From Paragyromitra xinjiangensis (Eukaryota; Ascomycota; Pezizomycetes; Pezizales; Discinaceae): a stretch of DNA of 64,000 nt. Shown here one piece after another: positions 18,164-63,699 of the stretch (the stretch's first letter is position 1; each line of letters begins with the position of its first letter). The stretch covers positions 806,001 through 870,000 of the forward strand of contig JBCAMK010000020.1 of the NCBI GenBank assembly GCA_038503065.1. The letters are read 5' to 3'. The notes below the pieces were generated by a model that ran no database searches, was not told the DNA's origin, and saw only the letters and a list, made by a program, of their open reading frames with translations. A program made the position numbers and the translations under genes.

Positions 18164-18196
18164 TTATTTATTTATTTATTGTTCATACTCGCATGC

Positions 18197-18209
18197 ATCC
18201 GAATCGGAT
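18197..18209 (-). other. 3'-terminal hairpin of half-LINE A1
   Basis: ATCCG-ATT-CGGAT in element orientation, about 20 nt before the (AATA)n tail. The stem is kept in A1-A8 and in LINE B (37283-37295), while the loop varies (ATT, TTT, TTA). A9 has one G-U pair. Likely recognition site for the reverse transcriptase. Confidence 0.6.
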
Positions 18210-18390
18210 ATGGCGTACAATAAGAGAAAACCCAACAGGAACAAAAAGAAAACAAAACAAACTAACTAAACCCTCCACCAGTTCCGTCTCAGCCTCTCTC
18301 AGGCTCATCGTCAGTTAATATGATAAGGAAAGACAAGTGACTACCCGAAGATCTCAACCTGTTCCTTTTTCCTTCACCATCGCATGTTTT

Positions 18391-18403
18391 GGGCCTATAG
18401 CCC
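18391..18403 (-). other. Upstream 3' UTR hairpin of half-LINE A1
   Basis: GGGC-TATAG-GCCC, followed by a conserved CAAAxCATG block. A3, A4, A6 and A8 have GTGC-TATAG-GCAC, a covarying pair. LINE B has GGGC-TATAG-GCCC at 37656-37668, overlapping its ORF2 stop. Confidence 0.6.
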
Positions 18404-18464
18404 TCCTTCCACTGAATCCTAAGACCCCTGAAGGCTGGTTAAATCATAACAGGTAGGGAAAAAC

Positions 18465-20015
18465 TTAAACAACCATGCGATCCTGACGTTCGCTGGCCCT
18501 AAGTCTTGCTTGAGTGAGTGTGAGGCAACCAGAAAAGTTACCACGATGCAATTCGTTACAGTTCTTGCAATGGATGATAGTGTGGAGGCAAGGAGCTCCC
18601 TTGATGGTGCAAGAGGAGGTTGCGCAGGAGTGAGAGGATGCTGTATGTGGCCCAGCGCAGATGTTGCAGTAAGGGGTTTTGCTGGTACAGTGTTGTTGTG
18701 GGTGGCCAAAGGCCAGGCAGGTGGTGCATTGAGTGTCTGACCCAAAGTGAAGGTATTTGGTGACTTTGTGACGAAGTCCAAACATGGAGAGCCCTCTCTC
18801 AAGGGCAGTGGTGGCAGGCTGCTTCCCCACAATGGTAAGAACCATGGAGGATGCCTGTTTCCCCTCTCTCTGCTCAGGTCTGGTGAGCCAGCGGGGGTCG
18901 CGAAGTAGGGTGGTGCCTGGGTTGAACTGCTCAACCTCAGACCTGATCTGCTGGAATCCCTCTTCGCCAGAGGGGATGGAGGTGGGGACATTGTGCACAA
19001 CAACTTGGGTAAGGATGGCTTCCTTTTCCATGCTGGTGGCATTGGGAATAGTGGTGCGAACAACTTCCTCAAGCTTCTGTCTTTGCTTGAGGAGGGAGTC
19101 AGAGGTAGTGGAGGTAACAGCAATGAGCTGCACATGGTGGGCAGGAGTGAATCGCACCTCTGCAATCAATGGCCTTTCCAGGGCAGCATTGACTGCATTG
19201 CGAATGAGGAGTGGGGTGAAGTCATCAGGAATGGGTAGACCATTCCTGGTGATGATGAGGGTTCTGTCGCGTTTTGGAGGCGCTGTAGGTTGTTTGGAAG
19301 GCTTTGGGGCCTTGTTGGTGGGTCTAGAAGCCTTTTTAGAGGCAACCTGAGCCCAGGAGGTGGTAGCTGGCGGAGGAGCAGGTGCTGGAGGAAGGGGGAG
19401 GTTGGCAGAGGTCAGAATTGTTGTGAGTGTCCGTTTCTGTTCCAGGTCTGCAACCTTGGAGGTGAGGGTGGCCACCTTTTCCACTAGAGCTGGGTCATTG
19501 TGGAAGGTAGGGGCTGGTGGGGGTGTGAGGATAGCTTTTTCAAGCTGCTTGACGCGTTTGGTGAGTGCCTTGATGAGCCTGTTCTGCTCATCCATCACTG
19601 CGAAGAGGGAGGGGTTGTAGTTCTCCCCAGTATCAATGGCACCAAGGCGATCCAAATTGCTGTTAGAATCATCCATCTGGATGACTGGAGGTAGGGTGGT
19701 GGAAAAGGTGAGGGGTCCCTCAGTGTCCGTCATGTCAGAGTCAGACTCTTCCAAGAGAACAGACCCACTGTCTGTACCAGTGGGGTCTGTGGCGGGCAGG
19801 GAGGCATAGTGAGGTAGGGGGACTGCTGGGCGAAGTGGCAGGGCTTGTGTAGGTGTCTGCTCTGGGTCTCCATGGAGCAGAGGTGAAAAACGGGTGTTTG
19901 GGGGTGTTGTAGGGGCGCCAAAAGGCGTTTGGAGCGGGTTTTGGGGTGAATTCACAGAAGAGGGAGACCTGAAGCCTCTGCCTCTCCCTCTGCCTCTAGA
20001 CGAAGAGGAAGACAT
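18465..20015 (-). CDS. Half-LINE ORF1 protein (A1), intact
   Basis: 516 residues. N-terminus MSSSSSRGRGRGRGF (RG-rich, RNA-binding type), then Pro/Ser-rich and acidic stretches. Two predicted coiled-coil heptad segments follow (RLIKALTKRVKQLEKAI; LVEKVATLTSKVADLEQK). Next is a conserved core with TLIITRNGLPIP and VVHNVPTSIPSGEEG. The C-terminus has three zinc knuckles (CTTCLAFGHPQQHC, CNICAGPH, CKNCNELH). The core and knuckles align with LINE B ORF1. The likely role is binding its RNA in an RNP and using an ORF2 supplied in trans. The start was chosen because every copy has ATG at this place just after a conserved 5' UTR. Confidence 0.88.
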   Translation of the reverse strand: MSSSSSRGRGRGRGFRSPSSVNSPQNPLQTPFGAPTTPPNTRFSPLLHGDPEQTPTQALPLRPAVPLPHYASLPATDPTGTDSGSVLLEESDSDMTDTEGPLTFSTTLPPVIQMDDSNSNLDRLGAIDTGENYNPSLFAVMDEQNRLIKALTKRVKQLEKAILTPPPAPTFHNDPALVEKVATLTSKVADLEQKRTLTTILTSANLPLPPAPAPPPATTSWAQVASKKASRPTNKAPKPSKQPTAPPKRDRTLIITRNGLPIPDDFTPLLIRNAVNAALERPLIAEVRFTPAHHVQLIAVTSTTSDSLLKQRQKLEEVVRTTIPNATSMEKEAILTQVVVHNVPTSIPSGEEGFQQIRSEVEQFNPGTTLLRDPRWLTRPEQREGKQASSMVLTIVGKQPATTALERGLSMFGLRHKVTKYLHFGSDTQCTTCLAFGHPQQHCTSKTPYCNICAGPHTASSHSCATSSCTIKGAPCLHTIIHCKNCNELHRGNFSGCLTLTQARLRASERQDRMVV

Positions 20016-20466
20016 AGAGAAGGGTCCTGAACCGACAGGAGGAAGTAGGGTGTGTTGGGGGGTTGCTGGGCCCTGGAGGGGGTCCCTGGCGGAGGGGGGT
20101 GGGAAATCGAGCAGAACTTCTGCAGTTCTGGTCGGATCCGAGCGAACGAGAGGGCGATCGAACGGGCGCGCTGAGGCGGTTCCAAAAAGCCCGGGGTCGA
20201 GCTAATCGGACGAAAACTGGTGGAGTTATGACAAAATGCAGATTGCCAAAGTTTGGTGAGGTTTTTGTTGTTGGGGGGGAAAAGAGGGGTAAAACAGCGA
20301 ATTCGACAACAACTTTTGCAAATCGAGAGCAACCTCGACGTACAATAGCAGGATCGAACCAGGGCAGCGAGCTGATTCCGAATAATCAAAAATCTCGTTA
20401 ATCGGAGTAGAATTGGTGGAGTTGTGACCAAAAAGTCACTTTGGCGTTGTTGTTGTCGGTCCTTCT

Positions 20467-22658: not shown

Positions 22659-25600
22659 TCAAATATCAAGCGCATCCATAAAAGAAAAACAATTCGCAAT
22701 ATTTAAGTCTTTTCCAAATAGAAAATCCCATTTAATATCCCGTTGTTCAAAAAATAAAGCTCGTTCAAAAGTATAAAGTGGACAGGAAAGGATGCGGTGT
22801 TTGGTTGCATCTTCTTCTCCGCATTGACAAATGTTGGGGGGTTGCCCCGGTAGGTGATCGGCTTTGGAGAGTTCATTTCTGACTTTCCAAATTCTCTTTG
22901 CGCGATGTAGAGGTAATTGAGCGATTTTCGAATTTAATTGTTTGGAATATAAGTGTGGAGGGGCCCATTTGTGATGTAGGGCTTTGCGCGGTTGGAGTGT
23001 TAACCAGTTTAATGTGGTTCTCGTCCTTTTGCATGATGGTAGATGGTAGGCTTCTTTGGCTAGGCGATCTGCTGCTTCATTCCCTGTGATGCCTGTGTGT
23101 GATGGGGTCCATTTGCCCATCACTTGGCAGCCGATTGATTGTAGGGTATGTATGTTGATGAGGGTATGCCAGAGGTATTCCCTGTTGGCTGTGGTTGCGC
23201 CTGTTAGCGCCAGTAGGGCATTTTGGTTGTCCACGCATAGGAAGACTGGAGCGGGGTGCATGATGTGGTTGACGAGTAGATGAGTGGCTTCTTGTATGCC
23301 ATGTATTTCTGCATCTTCGTTTTCAGCGTGGTGTGCAATATTGCATTGGTGTAAGTGGCTTTGTGTTTCGATGCCAAAGCGGATGTGAATTAGGTGTGCA
23401 GCTGTTGATGTGGTTCCATCTTCGGCTTTTGAGCCGTCGGAATATAGGAGCCAGGCGTTTTCTAATGTGCCGATCCAGGATTTGTGTTCTTGGGCTGTTT
23501 CTTCTTTGGATTTGGAAGATATGAGGATGTTTTCAGGTGGGAGATAATTTGGCAAAGAGGGGGGGAGAAGATTTTCAAGTGGTGGGGAATGTTGTAACAA
23601 GGGTGTGAGGAGTGAAGTGATTCGTTTGAGTCCGGTTCCTTGGTGCTCTTGATTTTGTGGTAGGAGTTTGATCAGGGGAAGGAAAGCTGGATTGTGAGGT
23701 CCGGTCTTTAGGATTCTGATAGCGTATTTTTGTGTATGCATGTCTAATAATAGATCTAAAGGAGGAAGGGCGGCTTCTGCGAGTAGCTTTTCAAGCTTGG
23801 TTCGCAGTGGAAGGCCAGTGATTAGCCTTGCGAGGGAGTGATAAGCTGGTTTGGTTCTTTCTAGGAGATTTTGTTTGCCTGTCCACCAAAGGGGTGAACC
23901 CCATAGAAAGTTGGGTACGGCTAGGGCGTTTGTGAGTTTATGAAGGTTGGATGGAGTAAGATTATGTGCTTTGGCCATGGTGCTAAGGCGTTGTGTGATT
24001 GCCCTGAGTCGGTTGGAAGCTTTGTCTATTTGTGGTAGGAAGGAAAGCTTGTCGTCGATGTATATTCCAAGTGATTTGATTACCTGCGAAGGTAGGATTT
24101 CAAGATTGATTGATGGTATGGAAAGTGGGATGTCCAGTTTCCTGATTGTGGTTTTTGTGAGAAAGTGTATGAGTTCTGTCTTGGGTGGTGAATATTTGAT
24201 GTTGAGGAATTTGGCCCTGTTGATTTTTTCCGTGAATCGGTTTTGCAGGGTGATGTTTGCGAACTTGGTGCTGAAGGCTCCTTGTAGGATAGCGTCATCG
24301 TCTATATAGATGGATGATTGTTGGAGGTTCGAGGGGGAGGGTTTGGCGTCTAATGCTGCGCTGTATATGGTGAATGCAATGGAGGAAATGGGCGATCCTT
24401 GTGGGAGGCCTTGTGGAAATGCTTTGGGGTTTTCCTTTTGTTGATTAAAGGAAAAGGAAATTGTGCGATTGTTGTTGAATTCTTTGTACCAGTTTGTGAT
24501 CCAATTGGGGAAGGTGTAATGTTGGAGGATGTGAAGTATTTGCGAGTGAATTACGCAGTTGAATGCTCCTTCTATGTTGGATGTGAGGAGGGATGGTCTG
24601 ATTTCCCTGTTGCCGCTTTTGTTTTTGCTTCTGACAATTTTCCTGTCAAGCCATTCTTGCGCAGTAGTGAGCAGGTTGGCGAGGGGATCTATGGCGGATA
24701 TGAAAGTTCTTGCTCCTGTGTGTTGGGAGTTTATCGCGCCTGTAGTGACTGCGTAGGCTTCTAATTTTTTGGCCACGCATTTCTCTAAGAGTTTGCCTAG
24801 GCATGAAAGTAGGGAAATGGGGCGGTAGGATTTGGGTGTGGAGTAATCGGGTTTCGATGCCTTGGGTATTGGGGTGATTAGGGCATGTTTCCAACAGGTT
24901 GGCATGACTGAATGTAGTAGCGCTTGATTGAAGATTTTTGGTATGAGGTTGGGATCGGCGAGGTGTGCTTGGATGATGATGGGGTATGTTATGCCATCTG
25001 TGCCTGGGGCTGAATTTTTGTTGGTTTTGGCGAGGAGTTTGCTGATGTGATTTGGTGTGATGTGTGGAAGTTCATGTGTGATGCTTGTGTGCGGTAGTTG
25101 TAGCCACTGTGGTGGTATGGGTTGTGGAGCGGAGGTGTTGGGTGGAAAGAAGGCTTTTGTGAAAATTTCGCATTTATCTTGAAATTCAGATTTGTTTTCG
25201 AGTGAGGGGATGTTGGTGGGGGGGGTGCGTCCTTTGGATTGTTTGATAGTTTTCCATAAGGCGTCAGGGTTGTTGGTGTTAAGTCTTTCCTGCCAGTGGT
25301 GTTCTTTGGCGAGTTTGACTTCTTTTTGCCATTTTTTGTGTAAGTTTTTGGCAGTGAGTTTGTTTTCTGGTGTGGGATGTGTTCTATAGTATTTGTTTGT
25401 GGCGCTGAGGGCCTTGCGTAATTTGGTGAGTTCTTTCGTCCACCATGATTTGGACTTTTGAGAGGGTTTTGAGAGGGGAATTGCGGTTTCTGTTGCTTGT
25501 TGTAGCATGTGCGTTAGAGTTTCGCATGCTAGTGTGGTTTGCGCTTTGGTTGTGAGCGGCATTTTGTGTATTGGGTGATTTTGTATTATGCGGTGAAATT

Positions 25601-26345
25601 TATCCCAGTCTGCTTTATGTATGTCCCTTTTAGGGTGAGTGTGGGTGTGAGCGTTTAAGATGAATGTTGTGGTGATGGTGGCATGATCTGAGCCATCTTT
25701 GAGTCCTGAGTCGCTTTCCCATAATTGGGCGAGGTGATCAATGCCCTTGGATAGCGTGAGGTCGATTATGGAGGGATTGTTGCCATTGCGTGGGAAGTGT
25801 GTGTATGTTCCTGGGTGATTGTGTAGATGGTAGTTTTGTTCTTCTAGCCATGAGACTAGGAGGTTGGATATGGGTCTGGTTCTGTCGATGGTTGGAAAGT
25901 GTAGATGTGTTTTGGCGCCATACCACCATGTGTGGTGGAGATTGAAGTCTCCGCAGATGATGTGGTTGGGTAGGAAAGTGTTGGTGGATAGGTAATTGTG
26001 CGATGATGGAAGGTGATTTGCATAGATGTTGGTGATGTCTATAATTAGGTTCGGAAATTTAATTCGTACTGTTATGCAATTGTTGAAGTATGTGGATTTT
26101 TGTATTGGGTTGAGGTGTGATTTGATGTAGGTTACGCATTTGGGATTTGGTGATATAGGTGCAAATAGTGTGAAATTCGGGATTTGAGGTGGTAGACCTG
26201 TTGGTAGGCACCAGGGGTCTTGTAGTAGGAGTGCTATTAAGTTTTCGTTTGTTGCGGCGTGTTGTGTTACTGAATAGGTGGAGGCCATTCCTTTGGCACA
26301 GTTCAGTTGCTGTACCTGGGCTATGCCTGATGATTTGGTTGTCAT
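22659..26345 (-). CDS. LINE C ORF2: endonuclease, RT, RNase H (open, motif A altered)
   Basis: 1228 residues. APE endonuclease has CGDFNLHHTWWYG and DGSDHATIT. RT has APGTDGITYP, PISLLSCLGK, GLPQGSPISS and YIDDDAI (motif C). RNase H has LYSDGSKAEDG, HAENEDAEIHGIQEA, CVDNQNAL and KWTPSHTGITGNEAAD. A C-terminal CQCGEEDATKHRILSC zinc motif is present. In RT motif A the sequence is TSNIEGAFN where LINE D has TTDIEGAFN: the catalytic Asp has become Asn, a G-to-A change (about 24570). The protein is full length but its polymerase is probably dead. ORF2 ATG follows the ORF1 stop by one base. Confidence 0.9.
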   Translation of the reverse strand: MTTKSSGIAQVQQLNCAKGMASTYSVTQHAATNENLIALLLQDPWCLPTGLPPQIPNFTLFAPISPNPKCVTYIKSHLNPIQKSTYFNNCITVRIKFPNLIIDITNIYANHLPSSHNYLSTNTFLPNHIICGDFNLHHTWWYGAKTHLHFPTIDRTRPISNLLVSWLEEQNYHLHNHPGTYTHFPRNGNNPSIIDLTLSKGIDHLAQLWESDSGLKDGSDHATITTTFILNAHTHTHPKRDIHKADWDKFHRIIQNHPIHKMPLTTKAQTTLACETLTHMLQQATETAIPLSKPSQKSKSWWTKELTKLRKALSATNKYYRTHPTPENKLTAKNLHKKWQKEVKLAKEHHWQERLNTNNPDALWKTIKQSKGRTPPTNIPSLENKSEFQDKCEIFTKAFFPPNTSAPQPIPPQWLQLPHTSITHELPHITPNHISKLLAKTNKNSAPGTDGITYPIIIQAHLADPNLIPKIFNQALLHSVMPTCWKHALITPIPKASKPDYSTPKSYRPISLLSCLGKLLEKCVAKKLEAYAVTTGAINSQHTGARTFISAIDPLANLLTTAQEWLDRKIVRSKNKSGNREIRPSLLTSNIEGAFNCVIHSQILHILQHYTFPNWITNWYKEFNNNRTISFSFNQQKENPKAFPQGLPQGSPISSIAFTIYSAALDAKPSPSNLQQSSIYIDDDAILQGAFSTKFANITLQNRFTEKINRAKFLNIKYSPPKTELIHFLTKTTIRKLDIPLSIPSINLEILPSQVIKSLGIYIDDKLSFLPQIDKASNRLRAITQRLSTMAKAHNLTPSNLHKLTNALAVPNFLWGSPLWWTGKQNLLERTKPAYHSLARLITGLPLRTKLEKLLAEAALPPLDLLLDMHTQKYAIRILKTGPHNPAFLPLIKLLPQNQEHQGTGLKRITSLLTPLLQHSPPLENLLPPSLPNYLPPENILISSKSKEETAQEHKSWIGTLENAWLLYSDGSKAEDGTTSTAAHLIHIRFGIETQSHLHQCNIAHHAENEDAEIHGIQEATHLLVNHIMHPAPVFLCVDNQNALLALTGATTANREYLWHTLINIHTLQSIGCQVMGKWTPSHTGITGNEAADRLAKEAYHLPSCKRTRTTLNWLTLQPRKALHHKWAPPHLYSKQLNSKIAQLPLHRAKRIWKVRNELSKADHLPGQPPNICQCGEEDATKHRILSCPLYTFERALFFEQRDIKWDFLFGKDLNIANCFSFMDALDI

Positions 26346-26346
26346 T

Positions 26347-27789
26347 TTAATTTGTGGTGGTGGGTTTTTTGGAGCGGTTTACTAGATATAGAGCTCTGGT
26401 CTTGGCTTTCTTGGGGCAATCAATAGCTGTGTGTTGGTTGGTGTCGCAGCATGCGCAGCGGAGGGGCATGTGGGTGCATCTGGCTCCTCCTTTACAGGTG
26501 GGTGTGGAGCACTTGTGATCTTTGGTGTGGTGGGATTGGGCGCATATGGCGCAGGCAGTGTCAGTTTTGCATGTGGCATCGTTATGTCCAAGTTTTTGGC
26601 AGTTGCGGCATTGGGTGGTGGGATTGATGGGGTGGTATTCTCGTGCTTTGCATGTGGCATTGAAGAGGTTGAGGTATGTGAAACCGAGTGATTTGAGGGT
26701 GTGTTTGGCAGGTATGGCGATGACGATGGAGGAGTGTTTTTTTCCCTTGCGGCCTTCGTCAGTGCTGAGCCATCTGGGTGCTTGTGCGAGTTCGACTTCG
26801 GGGAGGGCTGCTTGTAGTTTGTTGGTGATGTCGGTGATTTGGGTTGGCTTGTTGTTGAAGTAGGTTGGGACGCTGTCCAAAATGAACTTGGACCATCTGC
26901 TGTTGACTCTGGTGTTGGTGATGGGAATTTTGAGTAGTGTGCATACGGAAGTGATTTCGTGTTGGTATTGTGTGAGGAAGGTGTCTGCTGGCTCGTTGGG
27001 ACGGGTGAGTAGCATAAGATTGTCTCCATTTGTTTTCCTGACTGCGAGGATGCAGGTTTTCTGTGCTCCTAGTTTATTGTTTATGGCGTCGAGGATTGCG
27101 TCGGGGGTGATGGTTGTTGGGAGAGGTTCGGTGAGTTCCAGGATGATTTCTCTTTTATCCGTGGTGTAATCTGGCTTGTAAAGGGGTTGGGGTGCTGGTT
27201 TTTTGCCCTTTTTGTTTGGGACTTGTTGGAATGAGGGTTCACCTGGTGCTGGGGCGGTGATGTTGGCATAGGAGGTTTGAGCTCCTTGTTGGGGCTTTGA
27301 TTGATTGGTTAGGTTGGTGGGTTGGGGGGCTTGAATAATGGGAACAATGGGGGCGGTGACAGTGGTTTTTGCTGTTTGTAGACTGTGGAGTCTATTGTCC
27401 AGCGTGCGGACGTTGTTTTGGAGCCTGATGTTTTGTGCCTTGATGTGGGCAAGTTTGGTGAGGGAGGATTCATGCTGTTTATGGCTGAATTGGATTTGTG
27501 TCTTGAGGCTGCTTAGCTGTTGTTGGAAGTCTAGCTTCAAGTCTGCGATTTGGCTCTGGATGAGCCAGGCGAGGTAATTTGTGGCTTTGCTGTGGTTGTG
27601 GTTTTGAAGTTCCTCGGGCGCAAATTGTGTGAAGTTCATGTCGGAGTTGTAATCCTGTCCTCCGATGTCTTCTTCATCTTCGTCGGCTTCGCAAGATGAG
27701 CTGCTGTGGTGAGACGGTGGTTTGTCCATCATGGGGAGGTCTGCTGCGTCAAAGGCAGAGAGCGCAGTGGAGCCTTCAGCTTGAGACAT
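26347..27789 (-). CDS. LINE C ORF1, Gag-like zinc-knuckle protein
   Basis: 480 residues. N-terminus MSQAEGSTALSAFD, acidic; then Gln-rich likely coiled coil (about residues 60-130); then a basic Pro-rich linker. The core has REIILELTEPLPT and PRWLSTDEGRKGKKHSSIVI. Three zinc knuckles at the C-terminus (CRNCQKLGHNDATC, CAICAQSHHTKDHKC, CACCDTNQHTAIDC). Similar to LINE D ORF1 along its length. The frame is intact. Half-LINE A3 is inserted about 20 bases upstream of the ATG, which would replace its leader. Confidence 0.9.
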   Translation of the reverse strand: MSQAEGSTALSAFDAADLPMMDKPPSHHSSSSCEADEDEEDIGGQDYNSDMNFTQFAPEELQNHNHSKATNYLAWLIQSQIADLKLDFQQQLSSLKTQIQFSHKQHESSLTKLAHIKAQNIRLQNNVRTLDNRLHSLQTAKTTVTAPIVPIIQAPQPTNLTNQSKPQQGAQTSYANITAPAPGEPSFQQVPNKKGKKPAPQPLYKPDYTTDKREIILELTEPLPTTITPDAILDAINNKLGAQKTCILAVRKTNGDNLMLLTRPNEPADTFLTQYQHEITSVCTLLKIPITNTRVNSRWSKFILDSVPTYFNNKPTQITDITNKLQAALPEVELAQAPRWLSTDEGRKGKKHSSIVIAIPAKHTLKSLGFTYLNLFNATCKAREYHPINPTTQCRNCQKLGHNDATCKTDTACAICAQSHHTKDHKCSTPTCKGGARCTHMPLRCACCDTNQHTAIDCPKKAKTRALYLVNRSKKPTTTN

Positions 27790-27808: not shown

Positions 27809-30061
27809 TTATTTATTTATTTATTTATTGTTCATACTCGCATGCATCCGAAACGGATATGGCGTACAGTAGAAGAAAACCCAACAGAAACATAAAGGAA
27901 ACAAAACAAAACTAACTAATCCTCCGCGAATTCCAACTCAGCCTCTTCTAGGCTCATCATCAGTTTAGTAGTTAATACCCCGATCTAGTGACCTCTCCCA
28001 CAAGTCAAGACTACCCTGGGCATTGTTCATTCACCATCGCTTGCTTTGTGCCTATAGCACAGCCCACTTCCAATCCAAAAACCAGAAAGGACAAACGAAA
28101 TCGTAAGGGTGTAGGAAAGACTTATTGTTGCATGCGATTCTGTCGTTCGCTAGCAGCAAGTCTAGCTGCAGTGAGTGAGGGGCATCCTGGGGAATTGCCC
28201 TTATGTTGTTCGCCACAGTTAGTGCAGCGGATGGTGGTGTGGAGGCATGGGGATCCCTTGACAGTGCAAGAGGATTTGCCACAGGTATGTTGTGACGCTG
28301 TATGAGGCCCAGCACAGATGGTACAAATAGGGGTCTTGCTGGTACAACGTTGTTGGTGGTGCCCGAAGGCAAGGCAGTGAGTGAATTGGGTGTCTTGTCC
28401 AAAGCGAAGGTATTTGGAAACCTTGAGGCGGCGTCCGAAAAGGGAGAGCCCTCTCTCAAGGGCAGTGGTGGCAGGTTGTTTCCCCTGAATGGTAAGAACC
28501 ATTGAGGAAGCCTGTTTGCCCTCTCTCTGTTCTGGTCTGGTGAGCCAGCGAGGGTTGCGCATGAGGGTGGTGCCAGGGTTGAACTGTTCAACCTCTGACC
28601 TGATATGTTGGAAACCTTCTTCGCCAGAAGGGATGGAGGTTGGGACGTTGTGCAGAACAACTTGGAAGAGAGTGACTTCCTTCTCCAAGCTGTTTGCATT
28701 CGGGATGGTAGATCTCACAATCTCCTCAAGCTTTGATCTCTGCTTGAGGAGTGTGTCGGAGGTGGTGGTGGTAACAGCAATAAGCTGAACATGGTGGGCA
28801 GGTGTGAATCGCACTTCTGCAATCAAGGGGCTTTCTAGGGCTGCATTGACTGCATTGCGAATGGTGAGTGGGGTGATGTCCTCAGGAATGGGTAGACCAT
28901 TCCTGGTGATGATAAGGGTGCGGTCGCGTTTGGGGGGCGTTGTCGGTGTTTTGGAGGCTTTGGAGGCCTTGGGGGCGGTCTTGGAAGCCTTTTTTGAGGC
29001 AACCTGGGCCCAGGAGTGTGGTGCAGGCGCTGGGGCAGCTGCTGGAGGTGGGGGGAGTGAGGAGGAGCCAGAGGCAGAGGCCAAGATGGTAGTTAGGGCG
29101 CGTTTCTGCTCCAGATCTGCTACTTTGGCTGTGAGGGTTGCAATCTTTTCCACAAGTGCAGGGTCGTTGTGGAAGACTGGAGGTGGTGGAGGAGTCCTGG
29201 CTGCTTTTTCAAGCCTGCGGATGGTTTTGAGCATCTGCTTGATGCAGGCCCGGTATTCATGAAGGGTTGCAGCAAGCTGGACAACAGCATCTGCAATCTT
29301 GGGGGTGGTGTTGAGGATGGGGGGGGTGAATTCTTCCTCCGTTTCACTCTCAGATTCAGTCATCTCATGATCCTGAGAGTCTGGGGGGAGTGGGAGGGAT
29401 TCAAAGTCATGGAGAGCAACTGCAGGACGCAGTGGGAGAGTCTGGGTGGGAGTCTGCTCAGGGTCTCGATGGTGGAGGGCAGAAAATCGCGAATTGGGGG
29501 GTGTGGTAGGTGCTGTGGGTGTTGTGGGGGTGGTAAAGGGCGAAATTGCGCCAGGAGAGGGAGACTGAAAGCCTCTGCCTCTCCCTCTGCCTCTAGATGA
29601 AGAGGAAGACATAGAGGGGTCCTGAACCGACAGGAGGAGGTGGGGTGTATGGGGGGTGTTGCTGTGGGGCCCTGGGGGGGTCCCTAGCGAAGTGGGAGGG
29701 GGTGGGAGAAGCAGGAAGTGTCAACAACTTCTGCAAATCTGCTCCGATCCGGACGAACGAGAGGGCGATCGAACGGGCGCGCTGTGGGGAGTCCAAAAAG
29801 CCCGGGGTCGAGCTAATCGGACGAAAACTCGTGGAGTTATGAGGTCTTGCAAGATCTCAAGATTTGAGGTGTAGGGGGGGAAAAGAGGGGTAAAACAGCG
29901 AATTCAACAACCACTTTTGCAAATCGAGAGCGATTTCGACGTGCAATAGCAGGAATGAACGAGGGCAGCGAGGCGAGTCCGAATAACCAAAAAGTAGAGC
30001 AATCGGAGTTAAACTGGTGGAGTTGTGACCAAAAAGTCACTTTGGCATTGTTGTTGTCGGT
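27809..30061 (-). mobile_element. Half-LINE A3 in LINE C 5' UTR
   Basis: Flanked by a 14-bp duplication TTGTTTTGCGTTGG (27795-27808) and TTGTTTTGCATTGG (30070-30083) with one G/A difference. Full 5' end; extra GCTGAGTG on the plus strand between 5' end and TSD. 3' UTR 313 nt. Tail (AATA)n. Confidence 0.9.
28122..29612 (-). CDS. Half-LINE ORF1 protein (A3), intact
   Basis: 496 residues. It differs from A1 mainly in the N-terminal linker (STP/TTP-rich) and the first coiled coil (EYRACIKQMLKTIRRLEKA). Zinc knuckles and core are conserved; one knuckle Cys is changed (CTTCLAFGH of A1 is FTHCLAFGH here). Belongs to a subgroup with A4 and A7. Confidence 0.85.
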   Translation of the reverse strand: MSSSSSRGRGRGRGFQSPSPGAISPFTTPTTPTAPTTPPNSRFSALHHRDPEQTPTQTLPLRPAVALHDFESLPLPPDSQDHEMTESESETEEEFTPPILNTTPKIADAVVQLAATLHEYRACIKQMLKTIRRLEKAARTPPPPPVFHNDPALVEKIATLTAKVADLEQKRALTTILASASGSSSLPPPPAAAPAPAPHSWAQVASKKASKTAPKASKASKTPTTPPKRDRTLIITRNGLPIPEDITPLTIRNAVNAALESPLIAEVRFTPAHHVQLIAVTTTTSDTLLKQRSKLEEIVRSTIPNANSLEKEVTLFQVVLHNVPTSIPSGEEGFQHIRSEVEQFNPGTTLMRNPRWLTRPEQREGKQASSMVLTIQGKQPATTALERGLSLFGRRLKVSKYLRFGQDTQFTHCLAFGHHQQRCTSKTPICTICAGPHTASQHTCGKSSCTVKGSPCLHTTIRCTNCGEQHKGNSPGCPSLTAARLAASERQNRMQQ

Positions 30062-37250: not shown

Positions 37251-37282
37251 TATTTTATTTATTTATTGCTCATATTGCATAA

Positions 37283-37295
37283 ATCCGTAACGGAT
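37283..37295 (-). other. LINE B 3'-terminal hairpin
   Basis: ATCCG-TTA-CGGAT, the same stem as in the half-LINEs, followed by TTATGCAATATGAGCAATAAATA. Confidence 0.6.
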
Positions 37296-55640: not shown

Positions 55641-56526
55641 GTCAGTACGCCCAGAGCAGTGCCTAAAAAAAATCCGAGCCCAGTGCGCCCAGTGCGCCCA
55701 AGGCACTGGGCGCGACTGGACGCAGACCCGGCTTTTTGCTGATGTGGCCTTTGGCCACCCACAACAACGCTGTACCAGCAAAACCCCTTCCTGCAACATC
55801 TGCGCTGGGCCACATACAGCATCCTCCCACTCCTGCACAACCTCCTCTTGCACTATCAAGGGAGCACCTTGCCTCCACACTATCATCCGTTGCAAGAACT
55901 GTAACGAACCGCATCGTGGTAACTTTTCTGGTTGCCTCACACTCACTCAAGCAAGACTTAGGGCCAGCGAACGTCAGGATCGCATGGTTGTTAAAGTTTT
56001 CCTCTACCTGTTATGATTTAACCAGCCTTCAGGGGTCTTAGGATTCAGTGGAAGGAGGGCTATAGGCCCAAAACACGCAATGGTGAAGGAAAAAGGAACA
56101 GGTTGAGATCTTCGGGTAGTCACTTGTCTTTCCTTATCATATCAACTGACGATGAGCCTGAGAGAGGCTGAGATGGAACTGGTGGAGGGTTTAGTTAGTT
56201 TGTTTTGTTTTTCTTTTCGTTCCTGTTGGGTTTCCTCTTATTGTACGCCATATCCGATTCGGATGCATGCGAGTATGAACAATAAATAAATAAATAAATA
56301 AATAAATCTCCCCCTGTTGTCCTCCAGACGCTCGTCAACCCTCCGTGGTCGCCCAGAGAATAGCCTCCTGGACCTAGGGCGCCCCCATGCCGACCTCCAG
56401 TAAGCTGTCGCCGAGACGTGAAGGGCAAAATTTACAGCCTGAGGGAGGGCTATATTCCGCCCTGACCGCCTGGGGCGCCTGATGCATTGGGCGGACCGGG
56501 CGACAATCCGTTTTTTTGCTGATGGG

Positions 56527-56714
56527 GCTAGGCCAGCTTCAGGTAAGAGTTTGTGAATCGGAGTGAATTTAGGTAGTCCTAATATGAGGCGGGCGGCACG
56601 ATGGTAAGCAGGAGCAATTCTGTCTAATATGCTTTGGGTGCCTGTCCACCAGACTTCGGAGTCATAGAATGCGGCTGGGAGGATGATTGTGAGGGTGAGT
56701 TGATGTATTAGGTT
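56527..56714 (-). pseudogene. LINE E ORF2 piece between P2 and A6
   Basis: Reverse strand reads EVWWTGTQSILDRIAPAYHR, then LPEAGLAPL, matching LINE D around SPIWWTGAPT. It joins 58976 across A6 and 42875 across P2. Confidence 0.8.
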
Positions 56715-58957
56715 TATTTATTCACTCATTTTATTTATTATTCATACTCGCATGCATCCGAAACGGATATGGCGTACAGCAGAAGAAAACCCAACAGGAA
56801 CATAAAACAAAACAAAAACAAAACTAACTAATCCTCCGCCAGTTCCAACCCAGCCTCTTCTAGGCTCGTCGTCAATGAATGTGTTAATACCCCGATCTAG
56901 TGACTCCCTCTCACAGTGTCAAGACTACCCTGGGCATTCTTCTCTCACCATCACATGTTGTGTGCCTATAGCACTCCCTCCACTAAGCCCGAAGGCCCAT
57001 GAGGGCTGGATAAATCAATACAGGTAGGTGGAAACTTTAAAGAACCATGCAATCCTGACGTTCGCTGGCCTTAAGTCTAGCTTCAGTGAGTTTGAGGCAA
57101 CCAGAAAAGTTACCATGATGCTGTTCGTCACAGTTCTTGCAATGGATGATGGTGTGGAGGCAAGGAGCTCCCTTGATGGTGCAAGAGGAGGTTGCGCAGG
57201 AGTGGGAGGATGCTGTATGAGGCCCAGCACAGATGTTGCAGAAGGGTGTCTTGCTGGTACAGCGTTGTTGTGGGTGGCCAAAGGCCAGACAGGTAGTGCA
57301 TTGGGTATCTGGTCCGAAGCGAAGGTAGTTGGTGACTTTGTGGCGAAGTCCAAAGAGTGAGAGCCCTCTCTCAAGGGCAGTGGTGGCAGGTTGTTTCCCC
57401 ACAATAGTCAAGACCATGGAGGAAGCCTGCTTTCCCTCTCTCTGCTCAGGCCTGGTGAGCCAGCGAGGGTCGCGTAGTAGGGTGGTGCCTGGGTTGAACT
57501 GCTCAACCTCAGACCTGATCTGTTGGAATCCCTCTTCGCCAGAGGGGATGGAGGTGGGGACATTGTGCACAACAACTTGGGTAAGGATGGCTTCCTTCTC
57601 CATGCTGGTGGCATTGGGAATGGTGTTGCGAACCACTTCCTCAAGCTTTTGTCTCTGCTTAAGGAGGGAGTCGGAGGTGGTGGAAGTGACAGCAATGAGC
57701 TGCACATGGTGAGCTGGTGTGAATCGCACCTCTGCAATCAATGGCCTGTCTAGGGCAGCATTGACTGCATTGCGAATGAGGAGTGGGGTGATGTCATCAG
57801 GAATGGGTAGACCATTCCTGGTGATGATGAGGGTACGGTCGCGTTTTGGGGGGTTTGCTGGTGGTTTGGTGGTTTTGGTGGCTTTGGGGGCGGGTTTGGA
57901 GGCCTTTTTGGAGACAACCTGGGCCCAGGAGTTGTTTGCAGGTGCTGGGGCAGCTGCTGGAGGCAGGGGGAGGTTGACAGTGGCCAGAATGCTGGTGAGG
58001 GCGCGTTTCTGTTCCAAGTCTGCTACCTTGGTGGTGAGGGTGGCTACTTTCTCCACAAGAGCAGGGTCGTTGTGGAAAGTAGGAGGTGGTGGAGGAGCAT
58101 TGGCAGCCTTTCTGAGCTGCTTGATCTCTCTATTCAATTGCTTGACATAGAGGCGGTATTGGAATAGATCTTTGGCAAGCTGTATAACAGCATTCGCGAT
58201 CTTGGTAGTGGTGTTGAGAAGTGGGGGGTTGAAGTCTTCCAGGGACTCGTGCTCAGACTCAGACTCACTCATCTCATGGTCCTGAGAGTCTGGGGGAGCA
58301 GGGAGAGACTCATAGTCTTGTAGGGGCACTGCTGGGCGCAGTGGTAGGGCCTGTGTGGGTGTTTGTTCTGGGTCTCCATGGTGGGAGGCAGAAAATCGCG
58401 AATTGGGGGGTGTGGTGGGTGCAATGGGTGTTGTGGGGGTAGAAAAGGGCGAATTTGCGCCAGGAGAGGGAGACTGGAAGCCTCTGCCTCTCCCTCTGCC
58501 TCTAGACGAAGAGGTAGACATGGAGGAGAGTCCTGAACCGACAGGAGGAGGTGGGGTGTGTTGGGGGGGTGGTGCTGGGCCCTGGAGGGGGTCCCTGGCG
58601 GAGGGGGGTGGGAAATCGAGCAGAACTTCTGCAGTTCTGGTCGGATCCGAACGAACGAGAGGGCGATCGAACGGGCGCGCTGAGGCGGTTCCAAAAAGCC
58701 CGGGGTCGAGCTAATCGGACGAAAACTGGTGGAGTTATGAGAAGATGCAGAATCTCAAGATTTGGTGAGGTTTTTGTGAAGTGAGGGGTAAATAAGCGAA
58801 TTCGACAACAACTTTTGCAAAACTGGACGGATCCAGGCGTACAATAGCAGGATCGAACGGGGGCAGCGAGCTGATTCCGAATCTTCAAGAATCTCGTCAA
58901 TCGGAGTAGTATTGGTGGAGTTGTGACCAAAAAGTCACTTTGGCGTTGTTGTTGTCA
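56715..58957 (-). mobile_element. Half-LINE A6 in LINE E
   Basis: 15-bp target duplication TTGATGTATTAGGTT at 56700-56714 and 58961-58975. Full 5' end, 322-nt 3' UTR, GTGC-TATAG-GCAC hairpin. Confidence 0.92.
57037..58521 (-). CDS. Half-LINE ORF1 protein (A6), intact
   Basis: 494 residues, intermediate between the A1 and A3 groups. Starts MSTSSSRGRGRGRGF. Coiled coil QYRLYVKQLNREIKQLRKA. Zinc knuckles complete (CTTCLAFGHPQQRC, CNICAGPH, CKNCDEQH). Confidence 0.88.
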   Translation of the reverse strand: MSTSSSRGRGRGRGFQSPSPGANSPFSTPTTPIAPTTPPNSRFSASHHGDPEQTPTQALPLRPAVPLQDYESLPAPPDSQDHEMSESESEHESLEDFNPPLLNTTTKIANAVIQLAKDLFQYRLYVKQLNREIKQLRKAANAPPPPPTFHNDPALVEKVATLTTKVADLEQKRALTSILATVNLPLPPAAAPAPANNSWAQVVSKKASKPAPKATKTTKPPANPPKRDRTLIITRNGLPIPDDITPLLIRNAVNAALDRPLIAEVRFTPAHHVQLIAVTSTTSDSLLKQRQKLEEVVRNTIPNATSMEKEAILTQVVVHNVPTSIPSGEEGFQQIRSEVEQFNPGTTLLRDPRWLTRPEQREGKQASSMVLTIVGKQPATTALERGLSLFGLRHKVTNYLRFGPDTQCTTCLAFGHPQQRCTSKTPFCNICAGPHTASSHSCATSSCTIKGAPCLHTIIHCKNCDEQHHGNFSGCLKLTEARLKASERQDCMVL

Positions 58958-58960
58958 GTT

Positions 58961-59910
58961 TTGATGTATTAGGTTGGGAGTGGGGCCTTTGTCCTTGATT
59001 AGGTTGTTCACCAGGTAAAGGGAGGTCCTGAGGCGAGAAGCGGCTTGTTGACTGTGGGTGTGAAAGTTTAGTCTCTGGTCCTATAGGATGCCTAAAGTTT
59101 TGATGTATGGGGAGAGGGGGATTTCGGAATCGAAAATCCTGATTGATTGTAATGGGGGATGAGGAGTGCTGGTGGCGATAAGGTGAATTAATTCCATTTT
59201 CGCTTGTGAAAAGGTGATGTTTAGGAAGGAGGCACGGAATGTTTTAATTTCGTGTCTCTCGGTTAGGCGTTTGGTTGCGAAGGCAGGGGTTTTCACAAGT
59301 TGGAGCGCAGTATCATCATCAATGTATATTGTGGAAGATTTGGTTGGATGGGGGTTGTTGGGGGAATCAAGGGCGGCGGCATAGATGACAAAAGCTATTG
59401 AAGAAAGTGGGGAGCCTTGTGGGAGACCAACTAATAATGGTTGTGGGGTTTCCAATTCGTTATTAATTCAAAAGGCGAGTGTGCGATTTGAAGTGAAGCT
59501 GTGCATCCATTTGATGCACCATGCTGGGAAGGTGTAGTGTTCGAGGATTCTAATGAGGTGGGGGTGTGAGATGCAATTGAAGGCACTGTTGATGACCGTT
59601 GCTAAGATGGAGGGGCATAAAGGTGCTCTTGAGGCTTTCCTGTTGTTTCCAAGATTGGGGATAAGGACTTGTTTTTGAGCGGTAGTAAGAATGAGATGTA
59701 AAGAATCAATAGCGGAGACCCCAGTTCTGGCTCCTGTATGGTGTGATTGTATGACGCCGTTTAAGGTGGCGCAGGCTTCAAGTTTTTTGGCAACTATCTT
59801 TTCCAGAAGTTTGCCGAAGCAGGAGAGGAGAGAAACTGGTCGGTAACTTGTGGGGGAGGAATAATCGGCCTTGTTTGATTTGGGAATTGGGACGCAATGA
59901 GTGATTTTCC
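58961..59910 (-). pseudogene. LINE E ORF2, RT domain part
   Basis: Reverse strand: WKITHCVPIPKSNKADYS, PVSLLSCFGKLLEK, LVGLPQGSPLSSIAF, YIDDDTAL (intact catalytic box). TGA 59468-59470 stands at an expected Arg and a TAG follows near 59080. The upstream part of the LINE is cut at 59910 by the tail of A7. Confidence 0.82.
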
Positions 59911-62162
59911 ATTTATTTATTTATTATTTTTATTTATTTATATTTCATACTGCATAAATCCGAAACGGATATGGCATACATATAGAGAAAACCAAACAGA
60001 AAACAAAATCAAAACGCAACTAACTACCCGATTCCTCCCACTGGGTCCAACTCAGCCCTCTACGGCTATTCTTCAGTTTATGTGTTAATACCCCGATCTA
60101 GTGCCCTCTCCCACAGGACAAGACTACCCTGGGCATTCTTCTTTCACCAGCACATGCTTTGTGCCTCTAGCACGTCCCTCCAACAATCCAAGCACTGTCA
60201 AGGGAGATGAAGTCGTAAGGGTGGGGGGAGACTTAGATTTGCATGCGATTCTGTCGTTCACTTGCAGCTAGTCTTGCTGCTGTGAGTTTGAGGCACTCAG
60301 GGGAGTTACCACGATGTTGTTCGCCACAGTTAGCGCAGCGGAGGATGGTGTGGAGGCAGGGAGATCCTTTGACATGGCAGGAAGGTTTGCCACAGGTGTG
60401 TGTTGACACTGTATGAGGCCCAGCACAGATGGTACAGATAGGGGTCTTGCTGGTACAGCGCTGTTGGTGGTGGCCAAAGGCCAGGCAGTGGGTGCATTGG
60501 GTGTCCTGTCCAAAGCGAAGGTATTTGGAAACCTTGAGGCGGCGTCCGAAAAGGGAAAGCCCTCTCTCAAGGGCAGTGGTGGCAGGTTGTTTCCCCTGGA
60601 TGGTAAGAACCATAGAAGAAGCCTGCTTGCCCTCTCTCTGCTCTGGTCTGGTGAGCCAGCGAGGGTCGCGCATGAGGGTGGTGCCAGGGTTGAACTGTTC
60701 AACCTCTGACCTGATGTGTTGAAATCCTTCTTCACCAGAAGGAATGGAGGTGGGTACGTTGTGCAGGACAACCTGAAAGAGAGTGACCTCTTTCTCCAGG
60801 CTGTTGGCATTGGGGATGGTGGATCTCACAATCTCCTCAAGCTTTGATCTCTGCTTGAGGAGTGTGTCGGAGGTGGTGGTAGTGACAGCAATGAGCTGCA
60901 CATGGTGAGCCGGTGTAAATCGCACCTCTGCAATCAAGGGGCTTTCTAAGGCTGCATTGACTGCGTTGCGAATGGTGAGTGGGGTGACATCCTCAGGAAT
61001 GGGTAGACCATTCCTGGTGATGATAAGGGTGCAGTCGCGCTTGGGAGGGTTGGTGGGTGGTTTGGGGGCCTTGGAGGCCTTGGGGGCGGGTCTGGAGGCC
61101 TTTTTGGAGGCAACCTGAGCCCATGAGTGAGGTGCAGGTGCTGGGGCAGCTGATGGTGGTGGGGGGAGGTTGGCAGTGGCCAGAATGCTAGTTAAGGTGC
61201 GTTTCTGCTCCAAGTCTGCCACCTTGGTTGTGAGGGTTGCTACCTTCTCCACAAGAGCTGGGTCGTTGTGAACGGTAGGGGAGGTGGGGGGTTCCTGGCT
61301 GCCTTCTGGAGGCGTCTGATTTCCCTCTCCAGTTGCTTCACATAGAGGCGATACTGGTGGAGGTCTCTGGCGATTTGGATAACAGCATCTGCGATCTTGA
61401 CAGTGGTGTTGAGGGTGGGAGCCACGAAGTCATCCATGCTCTCATGCTCTGACTCTGACACTGTCATCTCATGGTCTTGAGAATCTGGAGGGAGTGGGAG
61501 TGACTCATAGTCCTGAAGGGCAACAGCAGGACGCAGTGGGAGGGTTTGAGTAGGGGTCTGCTCTGGGTCTCCATGGTGGAGGGCAGAAAGTCGCGAATTG
61601 GGGGGTGTGGTGGGTGCTGTGGGTGTTGTGGGGGTGGTGAAGGGCGAAATTGCGCCAGGAGAGGGAGACTAAAAGCCTCTGCCTCTCCCTCTGCCTCTGG
61701 ACGAAGAGGAAGACATGGAGGAGGGTCCTGAACCGACAGGAGGAGGTGGGGTGTATGGGGGGGTTGTTGTGGGGCCCTGGGGGGGGTTCCTGGCGGGTGG
61801 GGGAGGGTGGGAGCAGGAAGTGGCAACAACTTCTGCAAATCTGCTCCGATCCGGACGAACGAGAGGGCGATCGAACGGGCTCGGTGTGGGGAGTCCAAAA
61901 AGCCCGGGGTCGAGCTAATCGGACGAAAACTCGTGGAGTTATGAGGTCTTGCAAGATCTCAAGATTTGAGGTGTAGGGGGGAAAGAGGGGTAAAATAGCA
62001 AATTCGACAACAACTTTTGCAAATCGAGAGCGACCTCGACGTCCAATAGCAGGATCGAACGGGGGCAGTGAGGCGAGTCCGAATAACCAAAAATCTCGTT
62101 AATCGGAGTAAAACTGGTGGAGTTATGACCAAAAAGTCGTTTCGTGGTTTGTTGTTGTCGGT
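59911..62162 (-). mobile_element. Half-LINE A7
   Basis: Full 5' end at 62162 and tail at 59911. The left flank is LINE E and the right flank is half-LINE A8. No target duplication is visible, so one flank was lost or exchanged. Confidence 0.85.
60233..61729 (-). pseudogene. Half-LINE ORF1 (A7), stop and frameshift
   Basis: Begins MSSSSSRGRGRGRGF near 61715 on the reverse strand. Codon 16 is TAG (61669-61671) where others have CAG. A one-base shift occurs near 61255 (PPPLPFTTTQ for PPPTFHNDP). From 61252 to 60233 the core and zinc knuckles are open. Confidence 0.82.
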
Positions 62163-63699
62163 TACCCTACCTCCGGTCATCCAGATGGACGACTCCACTA
62201 GATCGCCTTGGTGCCATTGGTACTGGGGAGAACTACAACCCCTCTCATTTCGCAGTGATGGATGAGCAGAACAGGCTCATCAAGGCACTCACCAAACGCG
62301 TTAAACAGCTTGAAAAAGCCATCCTCACCCCACCACCAGCCCCTACCTTCCACAATGACCCAGCTCTAGTGGAAAAGGTGGCCACCCTCACCTCCAAGGT
62401 TGCAGACCTGGAACAGAAACGGACACTCACAACAATTCTGACCTCTGCCAACCTCCCCCTTCCTCCAGCACCTGCTCCTCCGCCAGCTACCACCTCCTGG
62501 GCTCAGGTTGCCTCTAAAAAGGCTTCTAGACCCACCAACAAGGCCCCAAAGCCTTCCAAACAACCTACAGCGCCTCCAAAACGCGACAGAACCCTCATCA
62601 TCACCAGGAATGGTCTACCCATTCCTGATGACTTCACCCCACTCCTCATTCGCAATGCAGTCAATGCTGCCCTGGAAAGGCCATTGATTGCAGAGGTGCG
62701 ATTCACTCCTGCCCACCATGTGCAGCTCATTGCTGTTACCTCCACTACCTCTGACTCCCTCCTCAAGCAAAGACAGAAGCTTGAGGAAGTTGTTCGCACC
62801 ACTATTCCCAATGCCACCAGCATGGAAAAGGAAGCCATCCTTACCCAAGTTGTTGTGCACAATGTCCCCACCTCCATCCCCTCTGGCGAAGAGGGATTCC
62901 AGCAGATCAGGTCTGAGGTTGAGCAGTTCAACCCAGGCACCACCCTACTTCGCGACCCCCGCTGGCTCACCAGACCTGAGCAGAGAGAGGGGAAACAGGC
63001 ATCCTCCATGGTTCTTACCATTGTGGGGAAGCAGCCTGCCACCACTGCCCTTGAGAGAGGGCTCTCCATGTTTGGATTTCGTCACAAAGTCACCAAATAC
63101 CTTCACTTTGGGCCAGACACTCAATGCACCACCTGCCTGGCCTTTGGCCACCCACAACAACACTGTACCAGCAAAACCCCTTACTGCAACATCTGCGCTG
63201 GGCCACATACAGCATCCTCCCACTCCTGCGCAACCTCCTCTTGCACCATCAAGGGAGCTCCTTGCCTCCACACTATCATCCATTGCAAGAACTGTAACGA
63301 ACCGCATTGTGGTAACTTTTCTGGTTGCCTCACACGCACTCAAGCAAGACTTAGAGCCAGTGAACGTCAGGATCGCATGGTTGTTTAAGTTTTCCTCTAC
63401 CTGTTATGATTTAACCAGCCTTCAGGGGTCTTAGGATTCAGTGGAAGGAGTGCTATAGGCACAAAACATGCGATGGTGAAGGAAAAAGGAACAGGTTGAG
63501 ATCTTCGGGTAGTCACTTGTTTTTCCTTATCATATCAACTGATGATGAGCCTGAGAGAGGCTGAGATGGAACTGGCGGAGGATTTAGTTAGTTTGTTTTT
63601 GTTTTCTTTTTGTTCCTGTTGGGTTTTCTCTTATTGTACGCCATATCCAATTCGGATGCATGCGAGTATGAACAATAAATAAATAAATAAAATAAATAA
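62163..63699 (+). mobile_element. Half-LINE A8, 5' truncated
   Basis: Starts inside ORF1 directly at the 5' end of A7 and ends with an (AATA)n tail near 63699. The only copy in the window whose own 5' end is missing. Confidence 0.82.
62170..63388 (+). pseudogene. Half-LINE ORF1 (A8), N-terminus missing
   Basis: Open from LPPVIQMDDS to VV-stop, nearly identical to A2 over the core and knuckles. About 110 residues are missing at the N-terminus, and a 9-bp gap lies near 62200. Confidence 0.8.

What the first reader, a model, noticed from the sequence alone, without database searches (positions are those of the whole stretch)
18164..63699. A half-LINE family: ORF1-only retrotransposons in many copies
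A1, A2, A3, A4, A5, A6, A7 and A8 share one layout: 5' end ACCGACAAC, 5' UTR of about 440 nt, a Gag-like ORF1 of about 495-516 residues, about 300-320 nt of 3' UTR, and an (AATA)n tail. None has an ORF2, and A8 is the only one truncated at the 5' end. A1, A3, A4 and A6 keep intact ORF1. This is a family with a defined size, not a set of deleted LINEs. The nearest parallel I know is mammalian HAL1. A fungal family that keeps ORF1 but borrows RT would be unusual.
Basis: partly seen in the sequence, partly recalled or inferred. Interest (0 to 1): 0.88.

Follow-up and report, generated by a model that had tools for sequence, protein, structure and literature searches.

The report
Half-LINE family at fungal centromere-like clusters
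A fungus carries well over a hundred copies of a jumping element that keeps only the first of its two genes, apparently moves with the copying enzyme of a related complete element, and sits almost only in one centromere-like cluster on each large piece of the assembled genome.

Summary
The A elements form an ORF1-only (half-LINE) family: start ACCGACAAC, 2.2-2.3 kb, one ORF1 of about 494-516 residues, about 300 nt 3' UTR, (AATA)n tail. Whole-genome searches give at least 126 loci on all 22 contigs. On contigs C1-C11, all 52 loci run from ORF1 into the family's own 3' UTR and none into an ORF2. ORF1 is under purifying selection (dN/dS 0.12-0.33 between subfamilies). Twelve of 20 copies show target-site duplications of 13-16 nt (shuffled control at most 10), and short copies matching only the 3' end occur, so these look like TPRT products.

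(1) A likely RT donor: a Tad-like LINE with intact copies (Lc) shares the 3'-terminal hairpin and tail, a second 3' UTR block, part of the first 90 nt and the TSD length. La and Lb, two other LINEs in the window, do not share that end. (2) A, Lc, La and Lb all lie in one block per contig (22 of 22), most simply the centromere.

It works like HAL1/L1, HeT-A/TAHRE and wheat Quinta/Cereba, but belongs to none of them. Trans-mobilisation and centromere identity are inferred.

The parts
18164..20464 (-). A1, full-length half-LINE, subfamily with 516-aa ORF1 (18465-20015); sits in Lc at 18164
   Evidence: flanks
27809..30064 (-). A2, full-length, ORF1 28122-29612 (496 aa); only a 9-nt flank match
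38312..40162 (+). A3, 5' part; ORF1 from 38761 broken by the A4 insertion
40159..42388 (-). A4, full-length, ORF1 40465-41955 (496 aa); inserted in A3 with 14-bp target duplication (40145-40158, 42389-42402)
42387..42853 (+). A3, 3' part with tail
44690..46427 (+). A5, 5' part, interrupted by about 9.3 kb of other DNA
55745..56309 (+). A5, 3' part with (AATA)n tail
56713..58962 (-). A6, full-length, ORF1 57037-58521 (494 aa), target duplication CCTAATACATC at 56702-56712 and 58963-58973
59908..62166 (-). A7, full-length, ORF1 match in two frames
62164..63699 (+). A8, 5'-truncated, frame open from 62258 to 63388
63826..64000 (-). 3' end of a ninth A copy that runs off the window
40190..40206 (-). 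A-type 3'-terminal hairpin CCATATCCGTTTCGGAT (in A4; same element at 18197, 27846, 56756, 59958 on - and 42804, 56248, 63641 on +)
13474..14811 (+). Lc (candidate RT donor) ORF1, 445 aa, zinc knuckles
14808..18164 (+). Lc ORF2 (endonuclease frame 14808-15887, RT and start of RNase H 15996-18164), cut at 18164 by A1
37251..38311 (-). 3' end of an Lc copy with the matching 3' hairpin (37283-37299, TTA loop) and (AATA)n tail
22659..27789 (-). La, LINE with intact ORF1 (480 aa) and ORF2 (1228 aa), different 3' end
30980..36098 (+). Lb, related LINE (ORF1 477 aa, ORF2 in two frames), different 3' end

Best explanation
The A family is an old, still-evolving non-autonomous LINE family that encodes only ORF1p (coiled coil, two RRM-like domains, zinc knuckles). 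It descends from an Lc-like LINE by loss of ORF2. Inferred cycle: A RNA starts at ACCGACAAC, is translated, and is bound in cis by its own ORF1p; the Lc ORF2 protein recognises the shared 3' hairpin and (AATA)n tail, nicks DNA in the centromere-like blocks where A, Lc, La and Lb live, and copies the A RNA by target-primed reverse transcription, leaving 13-16 nt duplications. Shown here: ORF1-only structure, shared ends with Lc, purifying selection on ORF1, target duplications, 3'-end-only copies, clustering. Inferred: that Lc ORF2p is the enzyme, that ORF1p acts in cis, that the clusters are centromeres.
For: At least 126 ORF1 loci (union, recounted; one search had 127 rows because one split copy counted twice); 52 of 52 on C1-C11 lead into the A 3' UTR. 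The 3' hairpin pattern has 191 genome matches and 0 for the reversed pattern; on C1-C11 the TTT/ATT loop forms (67) are all A, and the TTA form (32) never pairs with A and has Lc RT upstream in 25 of 32. A-Lc 3' UTR similarity z 16-18; against Lb z 0.2-1.7. Two aligned 3' UTR blocks, the first right after the Lc ORF2 stop. First 90 nt share a 14-nt block at the same offset, z 4-6. dN/dS 0.12-0.33 between and 0.08-0.14 within subfamilies. TSD of 13 nt or more in 12 of 20; Lc target duplications of 12-14 nt in 5 of the 8 copies with a 5' region fetched. Ten Lc rows of 62 match over the whole query in stop-free frames over 1300 aa (hand count). The ORF1 tree joins A, its outside relatives and Lc (100/99).
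Against: No expression or retrotransposition data. A ORF1 is only about 29% identical to Lc ORF1, so the pairing rests on UTRs more than on protein; Lc sits on a long branch (2.43), and the tree program warns that such joins can be false. A against La 3' UTR also scores z 5-6.5; I read this as shared T/G-rich runs but did not test that. Seven of 32 Lc-type hairpins had no Lc RT row within 4 kb upstream. Three of the 8 Lc copies with a 5' region fetched gave no flank match longer than 5 nt. Eight of the 20 A copies gave no duplication of 13 nt or more. The genome searches score only part of the candidates (86 of 582, 83 of 580, 95 of 552), so a rarer ORF2-bearing relative is not excluded.
Confidence: 0.8

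Rival explanations
1. The A copies are ordinary deletion or decay products of a complete LINE still present in the genome, without a life of their own.
For: UTR homology to Lc points to descent from an Lc-like LINE; several copies are broken or short.
Against: No ORF2-bearing parent with an A-like ORF1 was found: in a search with Lc ORF1 (95 of 552 candidates scored) the next rows after Lc are A copies at 29-33%; the loci share one ORF1-to-hairpin spacing (44 of 52 on C1-C11 at 237-318 nt), fall into subfamilies with dS up to 0.78, and stay under purifying selection.
Confidence: 0.07
2. A is moved by La/Lb or by any LINE RT present, not specially by Lc.
For: La and Lb have open ORF2 copies in the same clusters; A copies are inserted in or next to Lb-like and La-like LINE sequence.
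Against: La and Lb have other 3' ends (read); the 67 A-type hairpins on C1-C11 all belong to A and the TTA form goes with Lc; A against Lb scores like shuffled sequence.
Confidence: 0.12
3. A ORF1p mainly serves the partner LINEs in trans as a Gag donor (mutualism), as proposed for RLG_Quinta in wheat, rather than A's own RNA in cis.
For: ORF1 is conserved although A has no RT; A outnumbers Lc about 2 to 1 in 3' ends on C1-C11 (67 to 32).
Against: Lc keeps its own ORF1 under selection (ratio 0.14, 4 copies), so it does not visibly need A's.
Confidence: 0.12
4. The clusters are not centromeres but other heterochromatin where LINE insertions are kept because they are harmless.
For: No CENP-A data; no TTAGGG x4 repeats were found, so contig completeness is unproven.
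Against: One block for these families on each of 22 contigs, internal on the 18 contigs whose length was seen.
Confidence: 0.12

Closest known systems
HAL1 (half-L1) of mammals
   Same: Non-autonomous LINE derivative that encodes only ORF1p (PMC5753468, passages; PMC4859970, passages).
   Different: HAL1 derives from L1 and, as recalled, is dispersed in mammalian genomes; A derives from an Lc-like fungal LINE with zinc-knuckle ORF1, is clustered at one place per contig, and has a hairpin plus (AATA)n 3' end.
HeT-A with TAHRE/TART of Drosophila telomeres
   Same: Gag-only non-LTR element with no RT of its own, RT thought to come from a partner, a chromosomal niche, and a partner (TAHRE) with related Gag and sequence (PMC5537684, passages).
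   Different: HeT-A adds to chromosome ends in head-to-tail arrays; A inserts internally with 13-16 nt duplications in centromere-like blocks.
RLG_Quinta with RLG_Cereba of wheat centromeres
   Same: Centromere-specific pair of autonomous and GAG-only elements that share diagnostic ends while GAG diverges (PMC11302176, abstract and passages).
   Different: Those are LTR retrotransposons, thought to be guided by an integrase CR domain; A and Lc are LINEs, and the Lc frames scanned show no integrase.
Celine and other centromeric LINEs; VdLTRE9 in Verticillium
   Same: Retroelements concentrated at centromeres in plants or fungi (abstracts of PMC11288735 and PMC7482064).
   Different: The abstracts report no ORF1-only partner; VdLTRE9 is an LTR-type element to judge by its name.

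Membership tests
Half-LINE (HAL1-like, ORF1-only LINE family) | Encodes ORF1p only, as a family trait | tested here: met
   52 of 52 loci on C1-C11
Half-LINE (HAL1-like, ORF1-only LINE family) | Derived from an autonomous LINE, ends shared with it | tested here: met
   3' UTR blocks, hairpin, start and tail shared with Lc
Half-LINE (HAL1-like, ORF1-only LINE family) | Copied by TPRT (target duplications, tail, 5' truncation) | tested here: met
Half-LINE (HAL1-like, ORF1-only LINE family) | Moved in trans by a partner's ORF2p | not testable with these tools
   needs an assay
HAL1 proper | Derivative of mammalian L1 | tested here: not met
   Tree joins A with Lc and outside homologues, the only named ones fungal; zinc knuckles in ORF1
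HeT-A | Gag-only non-LTR element | tested here: met
HeT-A | Terminal transposition at chromosome ends in head-to-tail arrays | tested here: not met
   insertions with target duplications, blocks internal on the 18 contigs of seen length
RLG_Cereba/RLG_Quinta pair | LTR retrotransposons with an integrase-bearing partner | tested here: not met
   A ends in a hairpin and (AATA)n tail; Lc frames give endonuclease, RT and RNase H
Tad1-clade LINE (for Lc) | ORF1 with zinc knuckles; ORF2 with APE-type endonuclease, RT and RNase H | tested here: met
   Pfam hits, the RNase H one weak because A1 cuts it (E 0.006); CCHC columns
Tad1-clade LINE (for Lc) | RT phylogeny within the Tad1 clade | not tested
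   clade name recalled; no reference RT tree was built
Centromeric retrotransposon | Confined to one block per chromosome | tested here: met
   22 of 22 contigs; 120 of 126 A loci within 8.1% of the genome, the other 6 within 20 kb of it; that contigs are chromosomes is assumed
Centromeric retrotransposon | Lies in CENP-A chromatin | not testable with these tools
   no ChIP data

The most novel reading that the evidence does not exclude
A and Lc are the LINE counterpart of the wheat Quinta/Cereba pair and a centromeric mirror of HeT-A: an RT-less element whose ORF1p steers its RNP (and perhaps Lc's) to centromeric chromatin, so that a Gag-only element has become a main renewing component of fungal centromeres.
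Probability: 0.18. Interest if true: 0.87.

Novelty: new variant of a known kind. Interest (0 to 1): 0.66.

Why it matters
ORF1-only LINEs are known from mammals (HAL1) and, for telomeres, Drosophila (HeT-A). Here is one in a fungus, in many copies with open ORF1, with its likely partner in the same clusters and the shared recognition end visible, so the rule that decides which RNA a LINE enzyme accepts can be tested directly. The clustering also speaks to an open question that the wheat authors state: whether such pairs shape centromeres beyond Triticeae (they ask it for other plants; PMC11302176, passage). No description of such a fungal family turned up in the listings of my searches of an open-access library; subscription papers and Repbase were not searched.

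Tried and rejected
Template-switch idea: the LcRT frame and the A3 frame ended in similar peptides, which first looked like an RT jump between Lc and A; one search showed that both are antisense A 3' UTR next to nested insertions, so it was dropped.

Host identity: names of the nearest proteins (Maublancomyces gigas for ORF1; Lasallia, Sclerotinia, Aspergillus and others for RT) point to Pezizomycotina. My first guess from the Plavaka transposase was a basidiomycete (note). The species was not identified. A guess at Morchella was searched in the library and not settled.

Target-site motif: the base after the tail looked C-rich, but my pattern removes A and T there, so no claim is made.

A7: a count of stops over the whole element says nothing about ORF1 and is not used; the two-frame match is.

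Telomere repeats: TTAGGG x4 gave 0 matches.

dN/dS: 32 frames were collected, 24 of full length, A3 dropped, 23 used; only intact frames entered, and the method is pairwise NG86, not tree-based. The Lc ORF1 ratio used 4 copies and a cruder count.

One search had used 50 Lc rows and counted one split A copy twice; one search repeated it with 62 Lc rows (the 63rd row is only 31% identical) and corrected 53 to 52, 127 to 126 and 24 to 25.
Full report
What was checked. The window is C20:806001-870000 of a 48.2 Mb genome in 22 contigs. Uninterrupted full-length copies are 2219-2298 nt from ACCGACAAC to the tail end, with 431-449 nt before the ATG in A1, A2, A4 and A6 and about 300 nt after the stop. 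ACCGACAAC occurs 7 times in the window against 0.38 expected; six of these are element starts. Intact ORF1s are A1, A2, A4 and A6, not A3: A4 lies inside A3, and A5 is split by about 9.3 kb.

Is it ORF1-only genome-wide? Searches with A4 ORF1 and A1 ORF1 give 126 distinct loci on all 22 contigs; both searches scored only part of the candidates (86 of 582; 83 of 580), so this is a lower bound. By hand count of those tables 86 of the 126 match over the whole ORF1 without a stop. The 3'-terminal hairpin pattern CCATATCCGNTNCGGAT has 191 matches in the genome and none for the reversed pattern; the listing shows the first 100, of which 99 cover C1-C11 completely. There, 46 of 52 A loci have the hairpin within 1 kb downstream, 44 of them at 237-318 nt and two further off because the ORF1 match stops short. 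The six others were read: L018 ends in a normal A 3' UTR with a mutated hairpin; L045 and L046 align to the end of the A 3' UTR; in L019, L044 and L047 the A 3' UTR is interrupted by other sequence. So 52 of 52 lead into an A 3' UTR and none into an ORF2. Of the 67 A-type hairpins on C1-C11, 46 pair with an ORF1 hit; the other 21 were all examined and are A copies, several of them matching only the last 134-1050 nt, as 5'-truncated copies would.

As a check on all 126 loci, I looked for RT rows downstream on the same strand. Within 2.5 kb there are four La/Lb/Lc rows: a nested case in which Lc RT resumes 312 nt on (C18), two Lc pieces beyond an A hairpin (C10), and La next to A2 in the window, which lies beyond A2's tail. 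Four other RVT_1 rows lie within 4 kb (C13, C14, C16, C22). The C16 copy (L017) ends in its own tail. The C22 row starts 489 nt on, too close for a LINE RT behind an endonuclease. The C13 and C14 rows match over about 480 nt like the top-scoring, dispersed rows, not over about 760 nt like Lc. The 3' ends of the C13, C14 and C22 copies were not read.

How it moves. For 20 full-length copies both ends were located; 12 have flank duplications of 13-16 nt and one has 9; in shuffled pairings the longest match was 10. In two of the other seven (L023, L025) the fetched stretch stops at the tail, so their 3' flank was not held. Up to 10 extra nt lie before the start. With the short 3'-end copies and the (AATA)n tail this is the signature of target-primed reverse transcription.

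Who supplies the enzyme. Three LINEs lie in the window. Lc (13474 onward, interrupted by A1) has ORF1 and an ORF2 with endonuclease and RT domains and a weak RNase H match cut by A1; one search lists 62 Lc rows at 86-100%, ten of them in stop-free frames over 1300 aa. Its 3' end, read in L021 and at window 37251-38311, matches the A 3' end: the terminal block with hairpin and (AATA)n tail, and a second block beginning GGGCTATAGGCCCAAAGCATG that follows closely on the Lc ORF2 stop. Local similarity of A and Lc 3' UTRs is z 16-18, against Lb z 0.2-1.7, against La z 5-6.5, the last probably from T/G-rich runs (that reading was not tested). The loop distinguishes them: TTA goes with Lc (25 of 32 with an Lc RT row upstream, none paired with A), TTT/ATT with A. 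At the 5' end, Lc copies start with CGACAAC and share with A a 14-nt block at the same offset (z 4-6). Of nine further Lc copies sampled, eight had a 5' region fetched; five gave target duplications of 12-14 nt (one of them in a 5'-truncated copy), three nothing beyond 5 nt. The simplest history is that A arose from an Lc-like LINE by loss of ORF2 and part of the 3' UTR. The ORF1s have since diverged to about 29%, but the tree still joins A, the outside relatives and Lc with 100/99 support, with the warning that Lc is a long branch.

Is ORF1 needed? Among 23 intact ORF1s in eight subfamilies, dN/dS is 0.12-0.33 between subfamily representatives and 0.08-0.14 within the four subfamilies with two or more members; the coiled coil is fastest (0.60) and the RRM-like region slowest (0.16). 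Taking only intact frames should not by itself give ratios this low, though I did not simulate it. Selection on ORF1 in an element without RT is best explained by cis action of ORF1p on its own RNA. Lc ORF1 is also constrained (0.14, 4 copies), so Lc is not visibly dependent on A. The model of A4 ORF1p (mean pLDDT 62, disordered N-terminus) shows a coiled coil and two RRM-like domains at about 231-402; the zinc-knuckle tail (CCHC columns) is modelled poorly.

Where they are. Blocks defined from La, Lb and Lc rows with 30 kb margins exist on 22 of 22 contigs and make up 8.1% of the genome. Of 126 A loci, 120 lie inside and the other six within 20 kb. Of 106 other RVT_1 rows (the 44 rows that overlap Lc were left out), 53 are inside and 53 outside. 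Some of the outside rows have the longer span seen in Lc, so not every LINE-like RT is confined; the statement holds for A, Lc, La and Lb as scored. One internal block per contig is what a centromere would give: on the 18 contigs whose length was seen the block is not at an end. The assembly lacks TTAGGG x4, so completeness is unproven, and CENP-A data are missing.

Relatives elsewhere. ORF1 homologues at 46-52% over the whole 263-residue query region come from unnamed records, with contigs of 1.1-2.1 kb where one is given; four more from Maublancomyces gigas match at 46-69% over 38-78% of it. Their downstream DNA could not be read, so the age of the ORF1-only state is open.

What it is like. 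HAL1 (PMC5753468 and PMC4859970, passages), HeT-A/TAHRE (PMC5537684, passages) and Quinta/Cereba (PMC11302176, abstract and passages) work by the same logic; none is the same element. Verdict: a real half-LINE family with an identifiable candidate partner, a new variant of a known kind.

Noticed in passing
window 18164 and 38312; 20464 and 42853: A1 and A3 appear to have exchanged flanks: A1's 3' side and A3's 5' side share the Lc target duplication GCATCAAAACCCAT, and A1's 5' flank GTCAAGCAAAAAG resembles A3's 3' flank GTCAGGCAAAAG. This suggests an inversion of about 20 kb by recombination between two inverted half-LINEs.
   Followed up: partly
C1:3398766-3410111, C8:790431-801737, C14:1074958-1086297, C16:665136-682133 and 800081-811408: Lb-type LINEs lie head to tail at spacings of about 5.63-5.69 kb, close to one element length, in several blocks; La shows similar pairs.
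   Followed up: no
L043 (C9:1397700-1398700): An A copy with a doubled 3' end, two hairpins 115 nt apart.
   Followed up: no
window 47113-49665: Plavaka-type transposase frame inside the DNA that splits A5.
   Followed up: no
window 1018-7059: Ty3-like LTR element with 421-nt direct repeats 99.8% identical and a chromodomain.
   Followed up: no
window 43545-44510 and 8099-8399: Long tandem repeat with a 40-nt period, and an inverted relative about 35 kb away.
   Followed up: no
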